From contig NZ_JAJMLZ010000008.1 in assembly GCF_022227765.1 (NCBI RefSeq), positions 124,001 through 188,000 on the forward strand: a stretch of 64,000 bases of DNA. Direction: 5' to 3'. The DNA comes from Ectothiorhodospira shaposhnikovii (GTDB taxonomy: Bacteria > Pseudomonadota > Gammaproteobacteria > Ectothiorhodospirales > Ectothiorhodospiraceae). The notes under the pieces were generated by a model, which had not been told where the DNA came from, did not search any database, and saw nothing but the letters and a program-made list of their open reading frames with translations. The position numbers and the translations under genes are program-made. Below are positions 27,785-35,687 of this stretch, piece after piece. The first letter of the stretch is position 1, and each line of letters begins with the position of its first letter.

Positions 27785-28324
27785 CTAGGGCCGGACCTCG
27801 GCAGCCCAGGGGAGGCCAAGGGAAGCCAGTTTCCACGAAAAATTCCCCTGTCGATGCAGGATCAGATCCACTTGCTGAACCGGATCACGCTCGCTTTCGA
27901 TGGTGACCACAAACCGGTCCAGACCCGCATACCCCATGCGGATGCGGGTCTCGCCCTGGGAAGTAAAGCTCATGCCGCGACCATCCGGCTCGGGGATGTA
28001 TCCCTCCATGATGGTGGCTATCCCGGCCGGAGAAACCACGGCATCCACCAGCGGCTTGAGCAGCGCACCCGCCACCGCCACACCGAGCCCGCCGAACGGG
28101 TTGTCCCGGCGAAAATCCGCCAGTTCCTGGGCCAGAACCTCATTGAGGCTCTGACGCACATCTTCCCTCAGGGCCGGAAAGTCCACATGGCGGGCCAGCC
28201 TGTCCGCATCCCGGGCTTCCACTGCCGCCTGCATCTGGGAAGCCGTGTAGTAAGGCGCATAGTAATACCAGCCGCCCAGCGCAAGCAGGCCGGCAATGAC
28301 CAGGGGTTTGACAAGCATTTTCAT
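27785..28324 (-). CDS. DUF2939 domain membrane-anchored protein
   Basis: This 179-residue protein has one N-terminal membrane helix (KPLVIAGLLALGGWYYYAPY), followed by the DUF2939 hallmark YTASQMQAAVEARDADRLARHVDFPALREDV and a C-terminal strand-rich part. The family is common in Proteobacteria and has no known role. The start ATG 28324 has GGAGG close upstream. Immediately beyond this ribosome site begins the palindromic element at 28338-28665, so the natural promoter has probably been displaced or replaced by the element. Confidence 0.85.
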   Translation of the reverse strand: MKMLVKPLVIAGLLALGGWYYYAPYYTASQMQAAVEARDADRLARHVDFPALREDVRQSLNEVLAQELADFRRDNPFGGLGVAVAGALLKPLVDAVVSPAGIATIMEGYIPEPDGRGMSFTSQGETRIRMGYAGLDRFVVTIESERDPVQQVDLILHRQGNFSWKLASLGLPWAAEVRP

Positions 28325-28839: not shown

Positions 28840-29736
28840 TCAACGGTCCGGGGCGGAAGATGGCGCCAGTGATACCACCATCAGCTGGGCACCAAACCAC
28901 TGCTGGCGCAGGCCGCGCTGCTGCCCAAGCATGAGGGCCAGGTAATCGGCCAGCGGATGCCCCGAGGGCAGGCGTGCCGCATGGTCACGCAAGATTGCCT
29001 GGCAGGGTTGCTGCTCTGCGGGCAGATGCCCGGCGGTGGCCCGCTCGGCCAGCCAGGCGATAGGCGGCAGCAAAAGATCGGTCGCGCCACTACTCAGGGC
29101 ATGGCGGACACCCGCCGCATCGAAGTCGCCGAAGTAGACATGCGCCCTGCCCGTGCTGGCCCAGGCCTGGGCCAGCCTGCCAAAGCCGCCACCATAATGA
29201 CTGTCGCCGCGATAGAGCACCAGTGGACGGGACCAACGCTCCAGCCCGGGAAGGTCGGGTTGCAGATCGTAGAAGCTGTCCAGGTTCTCCACCTGAACGA
29301 GGACATCGAAGGCGGACAGATCGATATGGCGCCAGTCGAGATCCTGGATGTCCCGGGGCGCCGGAGTGATGCCGGGCCGGGATTCTCCGGCTGGCAGGCT
29401 GACCAGCACACGGTGGTGGCGCGGGCTTTCCCGCAGGCCCTTCTCTTCGAGATTGCCATGACGGGCCTGTTCGGCAGTGGTCAGGCCGCCAAGATCGACC
29501 GCAAGGGTCGGCAAACTCGATGCCTCAAGGATCGTATCGATCTGCGCCAGCAGGTCTTGGTCGAAGCGAAAGGTGCGGCCGGCGCAGCGCATGCCCAATT
29601 CCACGTCATGCGCATGGCACCAGGCCTCGATCTCCGCCATAACCTTGCCACCGCGGGACTTGTCGACGCGGGTTTCCTGGCGCAGCTTCCTGCGCACATC
29701 ACGCAACAGCCGGTAGGCACTCGCTGAAAGGCTCAT
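28840..29736 (-). CDS. jetD: JetD/MksG-like Toprim nuclease of a Wadjet system
   Basis: This is the nuclease subunit of a plasmid-restricting condensin. An N-terminal DUF3322-type helical region (residues 1-130, starting SLSASAYRLLRDVRRKL) precedes a topoisomerase VI-like Toprim (DUF2220). It has the catalytic Glu in VQVENLDSFYDL (E150), the YRGDSHYGGGF segment, and the acidic pair in YFGDFDAAGV (D204, D206). I chose ATG 29736, which overlaps the preceding stop in an ATGA; longer frames would run through the neighbour. At 298 residues it is short for the family, with the missing length probably in the N-terminal arm. JetD cleaves plasmid DNA brought to it by the SMC complex. Confidence 0.88.
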   Translation of the reverse strand: MSLSASAYRLLRDVRRKLRQETRVDKSRGGKVMAEIEAWCHAHDVELGMRCAGRTFRFDQDLLAQIDTILEASSLPTLAVDLGGLTTAEQARHGNLEEKGLRESPRHHRVLVSLPAGESRPGITPAPRDIQDLDWRHIDLSAFDVLVQVENLDSFYDLQPDLPGLERWSRPLVLYRGDSHYGGGFGRLAQAWASTGRAHVYFGDFDAAGVRHALSSGATDLLLPPIAWLAERATAGHLPAEQQPCQAILRDHAARLPSGHPLADYLALMLGQQRGLRQQWFGAQLMVVSLAPSSAPDR

Positions 29737-30980
29737 GCGGGTAGCGCCAGCCGTAAGTGCACATCGTGAATCAGGCGCAGATGGTTGAAGGGGCTGGCCT
29801 CGGTCTCCACCCGGTGCAGCCGGAAGGCACGCTGCTCGCTTCGCGGCAGCGCCTGATACTCGGCAATCACCTGGAAGAGCCAGAGTTCCTCGTCCCAGTC
29901 CAGATCGCTCCCCTGCAGATACTCCAGGGCGCTCACCCCCTCGCCGTCCTGATCCACCACCGCCAGATAGAATCCCTCCACATCTTCCTTGAGGGCCTGC
30001 CGGCGAGCGGCCACCCGGGTGTCCTCCGGCCACTCGGCGGCACCGGCGGCGGTGACCGGTTCCGGGCGCGACACCGACCGTGGCAGGCAGTGCAGCAGTT
30101 CGGTGATCAGGCGTGCGTCGGCATCGTGATCCAGGGCAACCGCCCCGGCGGGCCTGATGGGTGCCGCCCGGTTGATCAGTTCGGGCACCTCGCTGCGTCG
30201 AGCGTAGTTTCCAGGCACGAAGCCTGGGTGCTCGCGCAGGAAACCCACCATGCCGGCCACCAGCCGACTGCGCGACTGCTGCTGACGGAACCGCGCCATC
30301 AATTCGATCAGCCGCCGCTGCACCTCCCGCAGGCTGGTGTAATGGTGGGTGAGTTGCTGCTGCAGGCCGCTGACCAGCAGTTTGCGCAGGGCACCGTCGC
30401 TGCCCACCAGTTCGATCAGTTCGTCGAACTTGATCAGCTCCAGGCCGTCCAGCAGGCGCACGATCTGTTTCTGGGCGCGCTCGTTCTCGCGGATCTTGTC
30501 GCCCAGGCGACTGACGAAACCGAAGTCACTGTTGAGGCGCCGCCACAGGCTGTCGATGGCGTCGGCGAAACGACCGTTCAGGTCATCCACCTCCTGGCGC
30601 AGGCGCAGAAGCTGCTGTTCCTGGCGCCAATATTCGCCGGCGTCGCGGGCCTCGCGGTAGCTCTGCACCAGACTGCGCATCAGCTCCAGAGTCTCGGCCA
30701 CATCGGCATTGACGTGACGGCGGGTCTCGTCGGCCAGCATCTCGGCGATCAGCTCGCGCACCTTGGGGGCCAGCTTCACCCCGCCCTGTTCGTCGGGGCG
30801 CCACAGGATCCGCGCACCCAGCAGACGGTTCAGGGCCTGGGTGCTCAGACCTTCCAGCGGTACCTCGTCGCGGGCGTAGCCCGCCATCAGCGTCTCGGCG
30901 TGCCTGCCCAGCAGCCCCAGGCGGTCAATACCCAGGCTGATCAGCCGACTCTCCAGGGCATGAGGATCACCGCTGCTCAT
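29733..30980 (-). CDS. jetA: JetA/MksF-like kleisin subunit
   Basis: This 415-residue protein fits the MukF/MksF/JetA kleisin role, bridging the SMC heads and the MukE-like subunit. An N-terminal winged-helix-like part (about 1-80, containing LSTQALNRLLGARILWRP) is followed by long helices (VAETLELMRSLVQSYREARD and YWRQEQQLLRLRQEVDDLNG). A helical middle and an acidic C-terminal domain come after. Sequence conservation in kleisins is low, so the call leans on size, helical pattern and context. ATGA overlaps join it to the genes on both sides. Confidence 0.78.
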   Translation of the reverse strand: MSSGDPHALESRLISLGIDRLGLLGRHAETLMAGYARDEVPLEGLSTQALNRLLGARILWRPDEQGGVKLAPKVRELIAEMLADETRRHVNADVAETLELMRSLVQSYREARDAGEYWRQEQQLLRLRQEVDDLNGRFADAIDSLWRRLNSDFGFVSRLGDKIRENERAQKQIVRLLDGLELIKFDELIELVGSDGALRKLLVSGLQQQLTHHYTSLREVQRRLIELMARFRQQQSRSRLVAGMVGFLREHPGFVPGNYARRSEVPELINRAAPIRPAGAVALDHDADARLITELLHCLPRSVSRPEPVTAAGAAEWPEDTRVAARRQALKEDVEGFYLAVVDQDGEGVSALEYLQGSDLDWDEELWLFQVIAEYQALPRSEQRAFRLHRVETEASPFNHLRLIHDVHLRLALPA

Positions 30981-31603
30981 AGCAGACTCTGCTGACTGGA
31001 CGAGGACTGATCCTTAATGGGCAGATGCTCCTCGTCGCGGATGAAGCGTACCAGATCAATCAGGTAGTCGATCTTGCCGGTCACCACGTAGTACTGCCGG
31101 TCGGCATGGGGCTGCAGCAGGTAGCCATGCTCCTTGAGACGCTTGAAGACCTGCTTGAGCTGGGCATCCAGCTGGTCACTCTGGGAGCCGAAAAAGGGAT
31201 CGGAGGCCAGCCGATCCAGGCGATCCCGCAGGCCCTGGTGATCCTCGCAGCGGGAGCTGAAGTCGGCGGGCTTGAGTACGTCCCCGGGGGCCGCCAGACC
31301 GTCGCGACCCAATGTCTCCTGCACCAGCTGCAGCCACTCCAGCATCGGCAGCAGGCTGCCCACCGTGTCGCTGAGTTGCCGGGAAAGCTGCTCACGGGCG
31401 GCCTCATCGATCCGCAGCCAGGCCAGGAAATACACATTCCCATCGGTGTTGGTGGCCAAACGACGATTGAGCGGACGCAGGTAGGCGTCGATCTGCTCAC
31501 GGACCGTCTCATCCTGAAGGTGGCGGAAGGCGGTTTCATCGCTCACCGCGCAGAGGAATTCGCCGGCCAGCAGACGCTCCAGCAGCGGGCCCTGTTCGAT
31601 CAT
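30977..31603 (-). CDS. jetB: JetB/MksE-like subunit
   Basis: This 208-residue protein sits where the MukE/MksE/JetB subunit is expected. It has winged-helix-like character, with LLERLLAGEFLCAVSDETAF at the N-terminus, a central helical region and FKRLKEHGYLLQPHADRQYYVV near residue 165, a typical strand-turn-strand wing. The charged Ser/Gln-rich tail may be flexible. Both ends overlap neighbouring genes by ATGA (SMC start side and kleisin side), indicating obligate co-translation. MukE-like proteins bind the kleisin and DNA. Confidence 0.78.
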   Translation of the reverse strand: MIEQGPLLERLLAGEFLCAVSDETAFRHLQDETVREQIDAYLRPLNRRLATNTDGNVYFLAWLRIDEAAREQLSRQLSDTVGSLLPMLEWLQLVQETLGRDGLAAPGDVLKPADFSSRCEDHQGLRDRLDRLASDPFFGSQSDQLDAQLKQVFKRLKEHGYLLQPHADRQYYVVTGKIDYLIDLVRFIRDEEHLPIKDQSSSSQQSLL

Positions 31604-34600
31604 GGGGACACCTCCTCGGCGCGCGCCTGCAGACGCTGGGCCAGGCGGCTCAGACGCGGTTCGATGCGTTTGAGACGGCGTTTGCCGGGATCCGACTCAT
31701 CGCGGTCAATCAGGTAGCGGTTGTGGAACAGCAGCAGCACGTCCGACTCCGGGTTGGGGAAGGCACCGACGATATGGATATCGTTGTTGTCGCAGGCGTC
31801 GAAGATCTTCTCCACGTTGTGATAGGCCAGGGTGCCGATCTCGTCGATGGGCCAGTGAACGGCCACCTGAGCCTGGCCGCGCAACAGGCGAGTGAAGGCC
31901 AGCAGGAACTTGCACAGGATCAGGTAAGCCATGCCGTGACTGGAGGACTCCAGCAACTGGCGGTCACTCTTGATCACCAGGTCCGTGCCGCCTTCACTCA
32001 GGTGCAGTTCCAGGCGCAGCAGGCTCTCGAAGCTGTACTGCTGATCACTGCGCAGCAACTCCACCACGTCGGCCAGGGCATCCAGATAGTCGTCTCCGGG
32101 CAGCGGCTGGCCCGAATCACGCCACTCCCGGTAGCGATGGTTGAAGCGCTTGAGCGGCTCCCAGAACCCCAGCTCGTCGATGGTGGACTGGATCTTCACC
32201 TCGGCGCGACCAATGCCCTCCAGCTTGAGGTCATCGGCCACCTCGTCGGAGAGGCGTCGGCTCTGAGCGTTGATGCGTCGGTTGAGGTCGCGGAACACGG
32301 TGAAGAACTTGTCCAGGTCGTCGCCCATGTTGCGTCCTTCCTGCTGGAGCTGCTCCTGTCGGCTCTCGAGCAGTTGGAGCATGCCGGCCAGCACACCGAG
32401 CATGCGACGGGGGCCGGTGTCGTCGAGCCGGGCGCGCTCTGCAGCCAGGGTCTCGTGAAAATCCGCACTGGCACCCTTGATCAGGTCAGACTCCATGTTC
32501 TGACAGCCCTGACGCAGCGCGTCCTGGGTGCGGGTGTGATCCGCCAGCGCCTGACGGACACGTTCGATGCGCTCGCCGACATCCCCCGGAGCCTCGCCCT
32601 GGGAGGCCGGTGCCGGCTCCAGGTGCAAGGCGTCAAGCCGGGTGAGCAGTGGTGCAAGGGTCTCGACCAGTTGCCGTTCAGCACCGCGCCGCTTCTCAAG
32701 ATCGGCAACCGCTGCCCCATGTGCCTTTCGGGCCGTCTCGAACTGCTGCTTGAGCTGTTCCCGTTCGCGCACGACACTCTGGTGCTCGCGGCCCAACTCG
32801 GTCTGCCGGGTCAGCAGATGCGGCTTGCGCTCGCCCCAGTCCACCCGCATGAAACGCGCGTAGGCTTCGAGTTCCTCACGACGGCCCTCCGTCTGACGAA
32901 TGCGTTGCGCCAGCGCCTTTGAGCGTGAGCGGGTCTCGTTGAGACTGGCGGTGTCCACGCCCTGCTCGGCCAGTTCACGTTCGAAGGCGGCCTCGAGTTC
33001 CTCGCGCTGACGACGGTTTTCGTTCTTGAACTCGGCCAACTGGCGCCGGTGCTGGGCGATCTGCTCATCGAAACCGGCGAAACGCCCGCGGAATTCGTCG
33101 TTGAGTGCCTGGCGCTGGGCGTGGTGGCTTTCGGCCAGCGCCTGCAGGGCCTGTTCCCGCTCCTCATTCAGTGCCTGCTGCAGGCTCTCCTGTTCCTTGA
33201 GGGCCTCGCGGCAGGCGGCCCGCCGGGCCTGACGGGCCGCCTCGTGGCGCTGGTGGCACTGGTTGCGCGCCTGCAGGGCATAGTTCACGTCTTCAGCGGC
33301 GCGGCGGTGGGCGGCGCGGGCACGATCGAGCCGTGCGGAGGCCTCCTTTACCTTGTCATGGCGGGCCTTGAGGGCTTTCTCGGCAGAGTCTTCGGCCTTA
33401 CCCGCCTGATCCAGCGCCTGCTGGGCAGTCTCGATCTCGGCCAGCAAGGTGGCCTCATCCCAGGCGTGATCAGGCAGGGGGATGGCAGCGAGATCCACCA
33501 CCAAGCCATAAAGATCGTCGCTGGCAGCGTCGTTGAACTGCGGGGCCAGGTCGCGACGATCAAGCAGTTCCGGGGCGATCACCTTGCCAAGGCTCTGCTC
33601 CCAACCCGGGCGTTGGTGGCGCAGAAAATGGCGCAGGCTACCCTGGGCGGGATCACGCTGGATCAGCAACCCATCAAGGCGCCGTTCGGCCCGGGAGCGC
33701 TGCTGACGGGCAAGCTCCAGATCCTGCTCGGCATGATCCCGTTCACGCTTGCACGCTTCGAGTTCGCCGCGAATCGCCTCCACCGCGGCGGCGGCCGCTC
33801 CCTGTTCGCTCTGGGCCTGGTCGACCCGGGCCTGGACCTGCTGGGCCTCGTGGACCTCCTCGGTCGTCTGGCCGTCATGGGCCAGTTGGGCCTTGAGCTC
33901 GGCAAGCCGGTTGGCCCCCTCATCCAGGCGGCTGCGGTAGCCATCATCCACTGCCCTTCGGCGTTCCTGATGGTCGGCCTCCAGGCGTTGTTCCTGTTCA
34001 CTCCGGGCCTCGCGACAGGCTTCCTTCTCCTTGTCGAGGGCGTCGATGCGGGCCTGAGCCTCATCGCCGCGGCGTTCGAGCAGATCGCCAAGCTCCACCA
34101 GCCGGGCATTCAGGCGTGCCCTGCTCTCCTGCGCCGCCTGCTGCATCAACTCCAGATGATCACGTAGTTGCTGCAACGCTTCACGCCAATGGGGCAGTGC
34201 CTCAAGGTCGCGCTCAAGCCCGGGCATATCGGCTGCCTTGAAGGCCTCAAACTGGCGTTGCAGGTCGTCGAGCACGCGTCGAGTCTGATCCAGTTCGCTG
34301 TCCAGTTCGCTGATGCGGTCGTTGAGGGCACCGCGGGCCTCCTCATGGGCGTCTTCGCGGGCCTGGAACTCACGCCGAAGCGCATTGAGCTGAGCCTCAA
34401 GGTCAGCGCCTGCGCGCTCGGCACCCTGGAGGTCTGCCTTGAGCCTGGGCTGTAGCCGAGACAGTGCAGCCTCCAGATCGGCCATCTCGCGGTCGAGGCG
34501 CTGCAGGTCTTCCAGGGCCCGTTGCAGGGGGGCGAGACGCATGGACTGGCGCATGCGAGCGATCCATTCCCGGGCCTTGGTATTGCGGATACGGGTCACC

Positions 34601-35265
34601 GGCAGCTCGACGCCATCTTCCTCGAAGATGGCCGCCAGCATGGTCTTGAGGGTGTCCATCTTGCCCTCCTTGGCGTGCACCGCCGAGACCAGCTTCTCCA
34701 TGTGGCGGATGCGATGCCCGGTACCCACCAGGCTGAAGCGGGCCGCCATCTGGCGCAGGCGCAGCGATTCGCGGCTGTTGCCGTATTGCTGGGTGAAATC
34801 GTTCTGGATCACCGCGCGGTATTCGGAACTCGCACCGAGTTTCTGCGATACCTCGATGCCCTGGCGGCGCAGGCCGGTGGCCCACTGGACGTAATCCAGC
34901 GCGGTCACACCCCCCTCGCTCACGACCAGATAATCCTCGGGGCGATAGGGAGCACCGACGAAGCGATATTCCACCCCACCCTCGCTCTTGCGGGTGAGGA
35001 CCGCTTGACAGACATCACCCGCCTCGCGACGGTACTCATAGACCAGGTAGCTATTGCGGTGCGGCAGGTAGAAAAGGTCGAACTTGAGCCGCGTCCGGGG
35101 CACCACCTTGTTGGGCAACTCGCCGTAGAACACCGGCACCAGCCGCTGCAGGGTCGTCTTGCCCGAGGCATTGGTGCCGCAGATATTGGTGTGACCATCC
35201 ACATCCAGCTCGACCACCCCTTCGAGATGGCCATGAATCATCACGATGCGTAGCAGGTGCGCCAT
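31600..35265 (-). CDS. jetC: JetC/MksB-like SMC ATPase of a Wadjet system
   Basis: This 1221-residue SMC-type motor extrudes DNA loops. The N-terminal head has Walker A GTNASGKTT (residues 30-38) in a DGHTNICGTN context typical of MukB/MksB relatives. Long charged coiled coils fill about 240-980. The C-terminal head has the signature-like SSSHGMAYLILCKFLLAFTR and Walker B VAVHWPIDEIGTL (about 1141), followed by HIVGAFPNPESDVLLLF. I chose ATG 35265 with AAGGA 7 nt upstream; ATG 35289 is the alternative. It is first in the operon and overlaps the next gene by ATGA. The four genes are ordered SMC, MukE-like, MukF-like, nuclease, whereas jetABCD and mksFEB(G) loci usually begin with the kleisin. 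Confidence 0.88.
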   Translation of the reverse strand: MAHLLRIVMIHGHLEGVVELDVDGHTNICGTNASGKTTLQRLVPVFYGELPNKVVPRTRLKFDLFYLPHRNSYLVYEYRREAGDVCQAVLTRKSEGGVEYRFVGAPYRPEDYLVVSEGGVTALDYVQWATGLRRQGIEVSQKLGASSEYRAVIQNDFTQQYGNSRESLRLRQMAARFSLVGTGHRIRHMEKLVSAVHAKEGKMDTLKTMLAAIFEEDGVELPVTRIRNTKAREWIARMRQSMRLAPLQRALEDLQRLDREMADLEAALSRLQPRLKADLQGAERAGADLEAQLNALRREFQAREDAHEEARGALNDRISELDSELDQTRRVLDDLQRQFEAFKAADMPGLERDLEALPHWREALQQLRDHLELMQQAAQESRARLNARLVELGDLLERRGDEAQARIDALDKEKEACREARSEQEQRLEADHQERRRAVDDGYRSRLDEGANRLAELKAQLAHDGQTTEEVHEAQQVQARVDQAQSEQGAAAAAVEAIRGELEACKRERDHAEQDLELARQQRSRAERRLDGLLIQRDPAQGSLRHFLRHQRPGWEQSLGKVIAPELLDRRDLAPQFNDAASDDLYGLVVDLAAIPLPDHAWDEATLLAEIETAQQALDQAGKAEDSAEKALKARHDKVKEASARLDRARAAHRRAAEDVNYALQARNQCHQRHEAARQARRAACREALKEQESLQQALNEEREQALQALAESHHAQRQALNDEFRGRFAGFDEQIAQHRRQLAEFKNENRRQREELEAAFERELAEQGVDTASLNETRSRSKALAQRIRQTEGRREELEAYARFMRVDWGERKPHLLTRQTELGREHQSVVREREQLKQQFETARKAHGAAVADLEKRRGAERQLVETLAPLLTRLDALHLEPAPASQGEAPGDVGERIERVRQALADHTRTQDALRQGCQNMESDLIKGASADFHETLAAERARLDDTGPRRMLGVLAGMLQLLESRQEQLQQEGRNMGDDLDKFFTVFRDLNRRINAQSRRLSDEVADDLKLEGIGRAEVKIQSTIDELGFWEPLKRFNHRYREWRDSGQPLPGDDYLDALADVVELLRSDQQYSFESLLRLELHLSEGGTDLVIKSDRQLLESSSHGMAYLILCKFLLAFTRLLRGQAQVAVHWPIDEIGTLAYHNVEKIFDACDNNDIHIVGAFPNPESDVLLLFHNRYLIDRDESDPGKRRLKRIEPRLSRLAQRLQARAEEVSP

Positions 35266-35687
35266 GTTGCGTCCTTGATCCCCTAACATCCGGAATGCCT
35301 ATTTTGCCTGTTCTTGGAGTCCAACCCATCATGTTCAATCCCGCATAAGGGATCAAGCACGGCGGCCACTGCAAACTTCTTTCTCATCAACCGTTTACTC
35401 GGGCATGCAGTCGACTCTCAGACAGCACGATGAGCGGTTCGACCATCACCAGGGCTCGGTTTTGTTGTCGTGACAGCGGGCGCCGCCCCCTGTCATTGTT
35501 TCGTCCGAGGAGCTTCATGCCTCCATCACTTCGCTGTCATACCCTGACGCTAGCATTGCATCCGGTGACTTTACGGAGAGGCTGCCATGCGACATATCCC
35601 GTGCAGAGAGCCCCTTCGTGTCTCGACCTTAGCCTTGGCACACTGACTTTATCATTGAAGGGACTAGACCTAGGGGGTTGATTTCCA
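35266..35687. other. Divergent intergenic region between jetC and the UshA-like gene
   Basis: No gene is recognisable in these 422 bp. They must hold both divergent promoters. Two exact CTGTCAT heptamers on the plus strand (35490-35496 and 35534-35540) start 44 bp apart, four times the 11-bp Pho-box period, but neither has a good adjacent repeat. Confidence 0.4.

What the first reader, a model, noticed from the sequence alone, without database searches (positions are those of the whole stretch)
28840..35265. Wadjet/MksBEFG-type operon in the order SMC, MukE-like, MukF-like, nuclease
Four minus-strand genes joined by three ATGA overlaps encode a complete SMC-kleisin-nuclease system. Described jetABCD and mksFEB(G) loci start with the kleisin and place the SMC third; here the SMC is first and the kleisin third. 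JetD is also short (298 residues) yet keeps the Toprim E150, D204 and D206. It may be a distinct subtype.
Basis: partly seen in the sequence, partly recalled or inferred. Interest (0 to 1): 0.66.

Follow-up and report, generated by a model that had tools for sequence, protein, structure and literature searches.

The report
SMC complex armed with short nuclease
A bacterium carries a four-gene machine that probably reels in circular foreign DNA and cuts it; it belongs to a little-described branch of a known group of such machines, and several of its relatives have lost the cutting part but kept the motor.

Summary
Four minus-strand genes joined by ATGA overlaps encode an SMC ATPase, a KITE subunit, a kleisin-like protein and a 298-residue TopoVI-A/JetD-type Toprim nuclease with E150, D204 and D206 intact. 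The order is a family trait, not a local oddity: SMC-KITE-kleisin-nuclease in 77 of 95 distinct loci surveyed, and in three further plasmids and a phage. Wadjet type I, type II-like, MukFEB and MksFEB loci read here begin with the kleisin.

Profiles and trees put it outside Wadjet I and II; type III was tested by profile only. The SMC groups with MksB; an AU test rejects grouping with type I JetC (p=0.001). The genome also has Smc, ScpA and a type I Wadjet.

Most telling: twelve loci lack the nuclease while the three motor genes stay under purifying selection. A similar short nuclease follows mksB in one of four MksFEB loci. Most likely this is a Wadjet-like system against circular DNA on an MksBEF-type core that also has a nuclease-independent use. 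Function is inferred. PMC7617805 surveyed this group; its operon list could not be opened.

The parts
31600..35265 (-). SMC ATPase (MksB/JetC position), 1221 aa
   Evidence: Pfam DUF3584 PF12128 761 bits over residues 8-1187; ATP-site motifs conserved in 17 homologues; groups with MksB
35155..35178 (-). Walker A, GTNASGKT, SMC residues 30-37
   Evidence: invariant G30, N32, G35, K36, T37
31840..31845 (-). Walker B D1141-E1142 of the SMC
   Evidence: invariant
30977..31603 (-). KITE subunit, MksE/JetB-like, 208 aa
   Evidence: Pfam MksE PF21980 33.3 bits, cut-off 27; hhalign to MksE 2.4e-6 over 55 columns and to JetB 6.9e-6 over 171 columns
29733..30980 (-). kleisin-like subunit, MksF/MukF-like, 415 aa (weak assignment)
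   Evidence: no Pfam family over cut-off (weak unrelated matches only); low-confidence model (pLDDT 64) whose five best Foldseek rows are MukBEF/MukF chains at E 0.02-0.08, TM 0.16-0.26; hhalign to MksF 1.7e-3
28840..29736 (-). Toprim nuclease, MksG/JetD-like, 298 aa, DUF7281
   Evidence: Pfam PF23947 47 bits; model pLDDT 91.5; VIA-align Z 11.0 to C. glutamicum MksG, 10.9 to TopoVI-A, 9.1 to JetD over residues 103-291
29287..29289 (-). catalytic Glu E150 of the nuclease
   Evidence: invariant; aligned to the JetD 'ENE' Glu by hhalign
29119..29127 (-). DxD metal site D204-F205-D206 of the nuclease
   Evidence: Asp pair invariant; aligned to JetD DxD
31600..31603 (-). ATGA overlap SMC/KITE
30977..30980 (-). 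ATGA overlap KITE/kleisin
29733..29736 (-). ATGA overlap kleisin/nuclease
35272..35276 (-). AAGGA ribosome-binding box before the SMC start at 35265
   Evidence: read from sequence

Best explanation
This is an accessory SMC complex on the MksB side of the broad Mks/Wadjet group, armed with a short TopoVI-A-type nuclease and encoded in the order SMC-KITE-kleisin-nuclease. By analogy with Wadjet, the motor would load on DNA and extrude loops; on a small closed circle it runs out of DNA and triggers the nuclease, while the large chromosome is spared. Shown here: gene content, order, active-site conservation, fold of the nuclease half, placement of the SMC, and continued purifying selection on the motor genes in lineages without the nuclease. 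Inferred: kleisin role, loop extrusion, nuclease triggering, plasmid restriction. Persistence of the motor without the nuclease suggests a second role, probably DNA organisation.
For: Full-length SMC family match. Toprim residues nearly invariant in 81 homologues; MksG, TopoVI-A and JetD are among the best folds. hhalign links SMC to MksB (7e-26) and nuclease to JetD (2e-6). Same order in 77 of 95 distinct loci, 78 with an ORF-calling artefact. The genome has Smc and ScpA, and 5 of 10 genomes of the genus carry the operon, as expected of an accessory system. 39 of 43 plasmid records with an SMC match exceed 100 kb (13 of the 43 hold one short fragment). Motor genes have pairwise dN/dS 0.02-0.13 with or without the nuclease.
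Against: No experiment on this family is known to me. The kleisin assignment is weak. PADLOC profiles hardly match. Many loci of related genomes share flanks, as a stable chromosomal gene would; defence-island context was not tested. Nuclease loss in several lineages argues that defence is not the only, or not always the main, selected function. The nuclease N-terminal 100 residues have no identified fold, so docking on the motor is unknown.
Confidence: 0.7

Rival explanations
1. It is chiefly a second chromosome-organising condensin, like P. aeruginosa MksBEF; the nuclease is an auxiliary part that can be dropped.
For: The SMC groups with MksB. Twelve loci with downstream sequence at hand lack the nuclease while the motor genes stay conserved. 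Single-linkage flank clusters of 32 loci upstream and 25 downstream. PMC7485682 (passages, some from the abstract) reports MksBEF acting in chromosome segregation in P. aeruginosa.
Against: Active-site residues intact in nearly all nuclease genes found. Patchy presence: 5 of 10 genomes of the genus, 91 of 201 genomes of one related family. Presence on plasmids and in a phage.
Confidence: 0.2
2. It is an ordinary member of Wadjet type I, II or III.
For: Same four kinds of subunit; JetD is a structural relative; among 14 family nucleases 3 match JetD2 weakly (best 5e-5) and 2 JetD1 (best 1.2e-4).
Against: PADLOC scores of the window proteins are weak; the AU test rejects SMC grouping with type I JetC, p=0.001; no DUF3322 match; different order.
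Confidence: 0.03
3. It defends mainly against phages rather than plasmids, sensing replicating or circularised phage DNA.
For: General kinship with SMC-based defence; one copy lies beside Tn7-like transposition genes and one in a phage genome.
Against: Described Wadjet/MksBEFG systems act on plasmids (PMC10586767, PMC10123090, passages). No specific evidence here.
Confidence: 0.06

Closest known systems
MksBEF condensin (P. aeruginosa type) and its armed form in L204
   Same: SMC closest to MksB in profile comparison and tree; in L204 a 277-residue nuclease-like ORF follows mksB and aligns with this family's nuclease over 214 columns (E 5e-5) but not with JetD (0.12)
   Different: SMC about 1220 aa against 917-943 in the four MksB read here; order SMC-KITE-kleisin-nuclease instead of FEB(G); three of the four MksB loci showed no convincing nuclease motif nearby
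MksBEFG of C. glutamicum / Wadjet JetABCD
   Same: four co-directional genes; Toprim fold and E...DxD site align with MksG/JetD
   Different: nuclease 298 against 382-426 aa in the 13 type I-like JetD read here, no DUF3322 match; order differs; SMC in another branch
Bacteroidota MksEB-type loci (L217, L219, L220)
   Same: SMC of L219 and L220 is sister to this family in the tree
   Different: KITE before SMC; no nuclease found near L219 and L220, L217 is cut inside the SMC; the kleisin there was not recognised
Topoisomerase VI A subunit / Spo11
   Same: Toprim half, Z 10.9 and 8.9
   Different: part of a topoisomerase or recombination complex, not of an SMC operon

Membership tests
Wadjet type I | PADLOC JetA1/B1/C1/D1 profile matches | tested here: not met
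   JetC1 20.6 bits on residues 1-42 only, JetB1 15.3, JetA and JetD1 none for the window proteins; in the family one JetC1 model matches 8 of 17 SMCs (best 2.4e-5) and JetD1 2 of 14 nucleases (best 1.2e-4). Canonical JetD score 427-655 bits in the 9 of 10 proteins that matched (the tenth, a 222-aa frame, did not match)
Wadjet type I | order kleisin-KITE-SMC-nuclease | tested here: not met
   order is SMC-KITE-kleisin-nuclease
Wadjet type I | SMC in the JetC clade | tested here: not met
   AU p=0.001, SH p=0.007 against family plus type I JetC
Wadjet type I | JetD with DUF3322 plus DUF2220 | tested here: not met
   DUF7281 only for P0004; no DUF3322 or JetD_C in 14 members; one further member, L215, matches JetD_C below cut-off (16.1 bits)
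Wadjet types II and III | PADLOC type II/III profiles | tested here: not met
   JetC3 25.7 and JetC2 17.1 bits on stretches away from the ATP-binding ends, JetD3 11.3; 3 of 14 nucleases match JetD2 (best 5e-5). No type III reference locus was found in 398 genomes, controls silent too, so type III is absent from the tree
MksBEF | SMC groups with MksB | tested here: met
   98.5/98; with Bacteroidota added 94.1/94 and 93.6/96
MksBEF | MksE-family KITE | tested here: inconclusive
   passes the Pfam cut-off (33.3 over 27), but the type I JetB of the same genome passes higher (66.5 bits), so the match does not separate the two
MksBEF | MksF-type kleisin | tested here: inconclusive
   hhalign E 1.7e-3, probability 16%; weak MukF rows from a low-confidence model
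MksBEF | order FEB | tested here: not met
   BEF order with nuclease; nuclease presence does not decide, as L204 has FEB plus a short nuclease-like ORF
Broad Mks/Wadjet group as in PMC7617805 | co-directional MksB >890 aa with Walker motifs, MksF 400-1200 aa, MksE 150-800 aa, optional flanking MksG | tested here: met
   1221, 415 and 208 aa, Walker motifs present, flanking Toprim nuclease; size and layout only, that paper's profiles were not available
Broad Mks/Wadjet group | restriction of circular plasmids | not testable with these tools
   needs an experiment

The most novel reading that the evidence does not exclude
The MksB side of the group has its own short nuclease (DUF7281), separate from the JetD of Wadjet, present both in this family and after mksB in L204. 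P. aeruginosa-type MksBEF condensins would then be disarmed descendants of such complexes, and the same disarming is visible several times over in Halomonas relatives: natural switches from defence to chromosome organisation.
Probability: 0.33. Interest if true: 0.77.

Novelty: new variant of a known kind. Interest (0 to 1): 0.57.

Why it matters
How defence SMC complexes and housekeeping condensins turn into one another is unresolved; [quoted passage not shown] Here are closely related armed and disarmed loci, such as Chromohalobacter sarecensis against C. canadensis, or Onishia L089/L098 against L073/L092, in which that can be tested directly. The profiles of PADLOC 2.0.0 match this family only weakly.

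Tried and rejected
A role as the only condensin was rejected: the genome has Smc (1134 bits) and ScpA. Plain Wadjet membership was rejected on profiles and tree. LmuB and other SMC-like profiles also match family SMCs weakly (best 2e-9), which I take as coiled coil without testing. Viral searches found little: no relative in viral contigs with three queries, the third with very specific patterns, and one phage record of 50,697. JetD2 gave 1 of 299 genomes; JetD3 none of 398 with silent controls, which says nothing on absence. P0004 found no plasmid by tblastn, though divergent nucleases are there. Foldseek gave no nuclease or kleisin match at E<=0.001. A promoter scan found none, terminators at chance. 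Not tested: whether nuclease-free genomes hold a copy elsewhere; empty sites in congeners; defence-island context. My own nuclease profile missed the L204 gene; Pfam found it below cut-off (20.6 against 27), so diverged nucleases elsewhere may be missed too. Petrushenko 2011 is not held and may describe related MksB families.
Full report
Observation. The four reading frames, their coordinates and the three ATGA overlaps are as reported. The SMC start at 35265 has an AAGGA box. The operon is 65.3% GC in a 62.0% GC window. The nearest named records are Ectothiorhodospira, with SMC identity 85-90%, so the window is probably from that genus.

Identity of the parts. The SMC matches Pfam DUF3584 at 761 bits over residues 8-1187; the second protein passes the Pfam MksE cut-off (33.3 over 27); the third has no family over its cut-off; the fourth matches DUF7281. 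The MksE match does not separate MksE from JetB: the type I JetB of the same genome scores 66.5 bits, and it was that gene, not the window's, that rang in a genome search with the MksE family. All 14 nucleases scanned match DUF7281; 2 also match the TopoVI-A/Spo11 Toprim family and 3 match DUF2399 weakly. The nuclease model has mean pLDDT 91.5. Its residues 103-291 align best with C. glutamicum MksG (8b7f, Z 11.0), TopoVI-A (1d3y, 10.9, tied) and, lower, P. aeruginosa JetD (7til, 9.1) and Spo11 (8urq, 8.9); this is a second look at Foldseek's list, and Foldseek itself gave no match at E<=0.001. In a profile alignment E150 meets the JetD 'ENE' Glu and D204/D206 the JetD DxD. PMC10123090 (passages) names MksG E236 and D279 as the metal site and mutated them; that these are the same positions is my inference. 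The Tyr proposed as nucleophile there (Y258) has a possible counterpart in Y175, which is Phe or Leu in 3 of 14 homologues, so it is not strictly required. The kleisin model is poor (pLDDT 64); its five best Foldseek rows are MukBEF/MukF chains, with E 0.02-0.08 and TM-scores of 0.16-0.26.

Survey. 98 loci were scanned with profiles of the four proteins. Three pairs are the same record fetched twice (L048/L053, L050/L095, L051/L054; equal contig lengths), leaving 95. The order SMC-KITE-kleisin-nuclease was found in 80 of 98, that is 77 of 95. One more, L060, is out of order only because an overlapping ORF start was called. Sixteen lacked a nuclease hit: four of these (L056, L061, L097, L113) end in the kleisin or 143 bases past it, L061 with the start of a nuclease gene, and twelve do not. 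One, L047, is an SMC fragment. The profiles were built partly from these loci, so hits among those are expected. Four of the 95 are plasmids (L034-L037). Of further plasmid loci, L216, L218 and L221 have all four genes in the same order with the Glu and Asp pair in place; L215 is in order but its SMC gene is interrupted by an IS element. L216 has Ser at G209. A Dolichospermum phage (PP438435, 209 kb) holds the complete set. The Bacteroidota relatives L217, L219 and L220 have the KITE gene before the SMC gene; an unassigned ORF of about 396 aa lies upstream in L217 and L220. No nuclease was found within 3 kb of L219 and L220; L217 is cut inside the SMC.

Distribution. The SMC is in 5 of 10 genomes of the genus (own included) and in 0 of the other 37 of the family. 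PF12128 passes the cut-off in 10 of 369 genomes of the class, own included, one of them an SMC fragment. A match to the window SMC is in 91 of 201 genomes of the family of G408; six of these are distant (25-28% identity) and one is a fragment. G408 is unnamed; its locus L041 shares flanks with Vreelandella and Halomonas loci. 420 stretches in genome contigs encode a relative, of which the best 80 were kept. In plasmids 43 of 72,556 records match; 39 exceed 100 kb, and 13 hold only the stretch matching SMC residues 4-214.

Placement. PADLOC JetC hits of the window SMC are 10-26 bits, partly on coiled coil. hhalign gives SMC against MksB 7e-26, type I JetC 3e-12 and MukB 2e-5. A maximum-likelihood tree of SMC heads (42 sequences; four close Ectothiorhodospira rows left out, MukB with its N-terminal head only) puts the family with four MksB at 98.5/98, apart from 15 type I-like JetC, one type II-like JetC, MukB and Smc. 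With two Bacteroidota and four more members added and eight rows dropped, the family plus Bacteroidota has 91.5/98 and 92.4/97 under two models, and these plus MksB 94.1/94 and 93.6/96. The family by itself is less sure, at 81.5/86 and 75.4/93. AU tests reject the family with type I JetC (p=0.001), family plus Bacteroidota with type I JetC (0.016), and family within the Wadjet I/II-MukB group (0.028); family plus MksB without Bacteroidota is not rejected (0.053). The SH test rejects only the first. Type III is not in the tree.

A nuclease on the MksB side. On re-checking, L204, an MksFEB locus, proved to have a 277-residue ORF overlapping the end of mksB. It matches DUF7281 below the cut-off (20.6 against 27 bits), has VEN and DYD motifs, and aligns with this family's nucleases over 214 columns (E 5e-5) but not with type I JetD (0.12). 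My family profile had missed it. No such ORF was seen within 3 kb of L201 and L203; the one motif match near L202 (ending ISDEDSVS) is not a Toprim-like one in my reading. So the MksB branch is not uniformly nuclease-free. This lowers the reading that the nuclease was recruited after the split from MksB, and raises the reading that MksBEF condensins lost a short nuclease; lateral transfer is not excluded.

The host already has other SMC complexes: Smc, ScpA and a complete type I Wadjet in order A-B-C-D on contig C39 (L163; JetD1 503 bits).

Loss of the nuclease. Twelve loci with downstream sequence lack a nuclease hit: Chromohalobacter L072, L075, L086, L132 (armed relative L100), Onishia L073 and L092 (armed L089, L098), Halomonas litopenaei L087 (armed L093), H. 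caseinilytica L122 (armed H. elongata L123), Rheinheimera/Arsukibacterium L128 and L129 (armed L126, L127, L130, L131), and the unnamed L039 and L040. L072, L073 and L092 keep stumps of about 20-57 residues; L132 and L122 gave one marginal tblastn match each, that of L122 on the other strand. L073 and L092 share a junction; L075 and L086 share the same gene after the kleisin. That makes at least five lineages, counted by genus and armed relatives and not by a formal reconstruction. Pairwise dN/dS of the motor genes is 0.021-0.134 in the twelve pairs with a disarmed partner and 0.018-0.085 in the four armed pairs (KITE not computed in one); the nuclease has 0.111-0.235 in those four. Pairs share members, and part of the divergence may predate the loss. 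Whether these genomes hold a nuclease elsewhere was not tested.

Literature. [quoted passage not shown] PMC7617805 (passages) surveyed the whole group by iterated profiles with the nuclease optional, and notes several members lacking it; its Data S1 was not readable here and may contain this family. [quoted passage not shown] Eight searches of the held library listed no paper on DUF7281 and none whose title or abstract start describes this family; besides those named, only passages of PMC8565338 and PMC12153180 were opened.

Verdict. A confirmed finding: a new variant of a known kind. Its most useful feature is the set of armed and disarmed relatives.

Noticed in passing
L163 3263-9855 (own genome, contig C39): A complete canonical type I Wadjet, order A-B-C-D, in the same genome as the window system.
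   Followed up: partly
L204 1174-6567: An MksFEB operon followed by a short DUF7281-like nuclease ORF overlapping the end of mksB.
   Followed up: partly
L214 5968-12323 (PP438435.1): A 209-kb Dolichospermum phage carries all four genes in the same order, annotated as hypothetical.
   Followed up: partly
L215 1-14733 (plasmid NZ_OR497351.1): A copy lies beside Tn7-like transposition genes and a WYL-domain gene; its SMC gene is interrupted by an IS256-type element.
   Followed up: no
L038 8989-9654 and 12 other plasmid records: The same SMC N-terminal stretch (query 4-214, 32.6%) recurs in Enterobacterales plasmids; in L038 it is followed by an IS630-type transposase.
   Followed up: no
L217, L220: Records labelled Bacteroides and Parabacteroides plasmids; L220 carries ribosomal protein and gcvT genes and may be misassigned chromosome.
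   Followed up: no
L101 13539-14198; L115 14176-14460: Shortened nuclease genes, one with Tyr at D204; L115 also has shortened SMC and KITE frames and may hold sequencing errors.
   Followed up: no
window 27785-28324: A DUF2939 protein gene on the same strand downstream of the operon.
   Followed up: no
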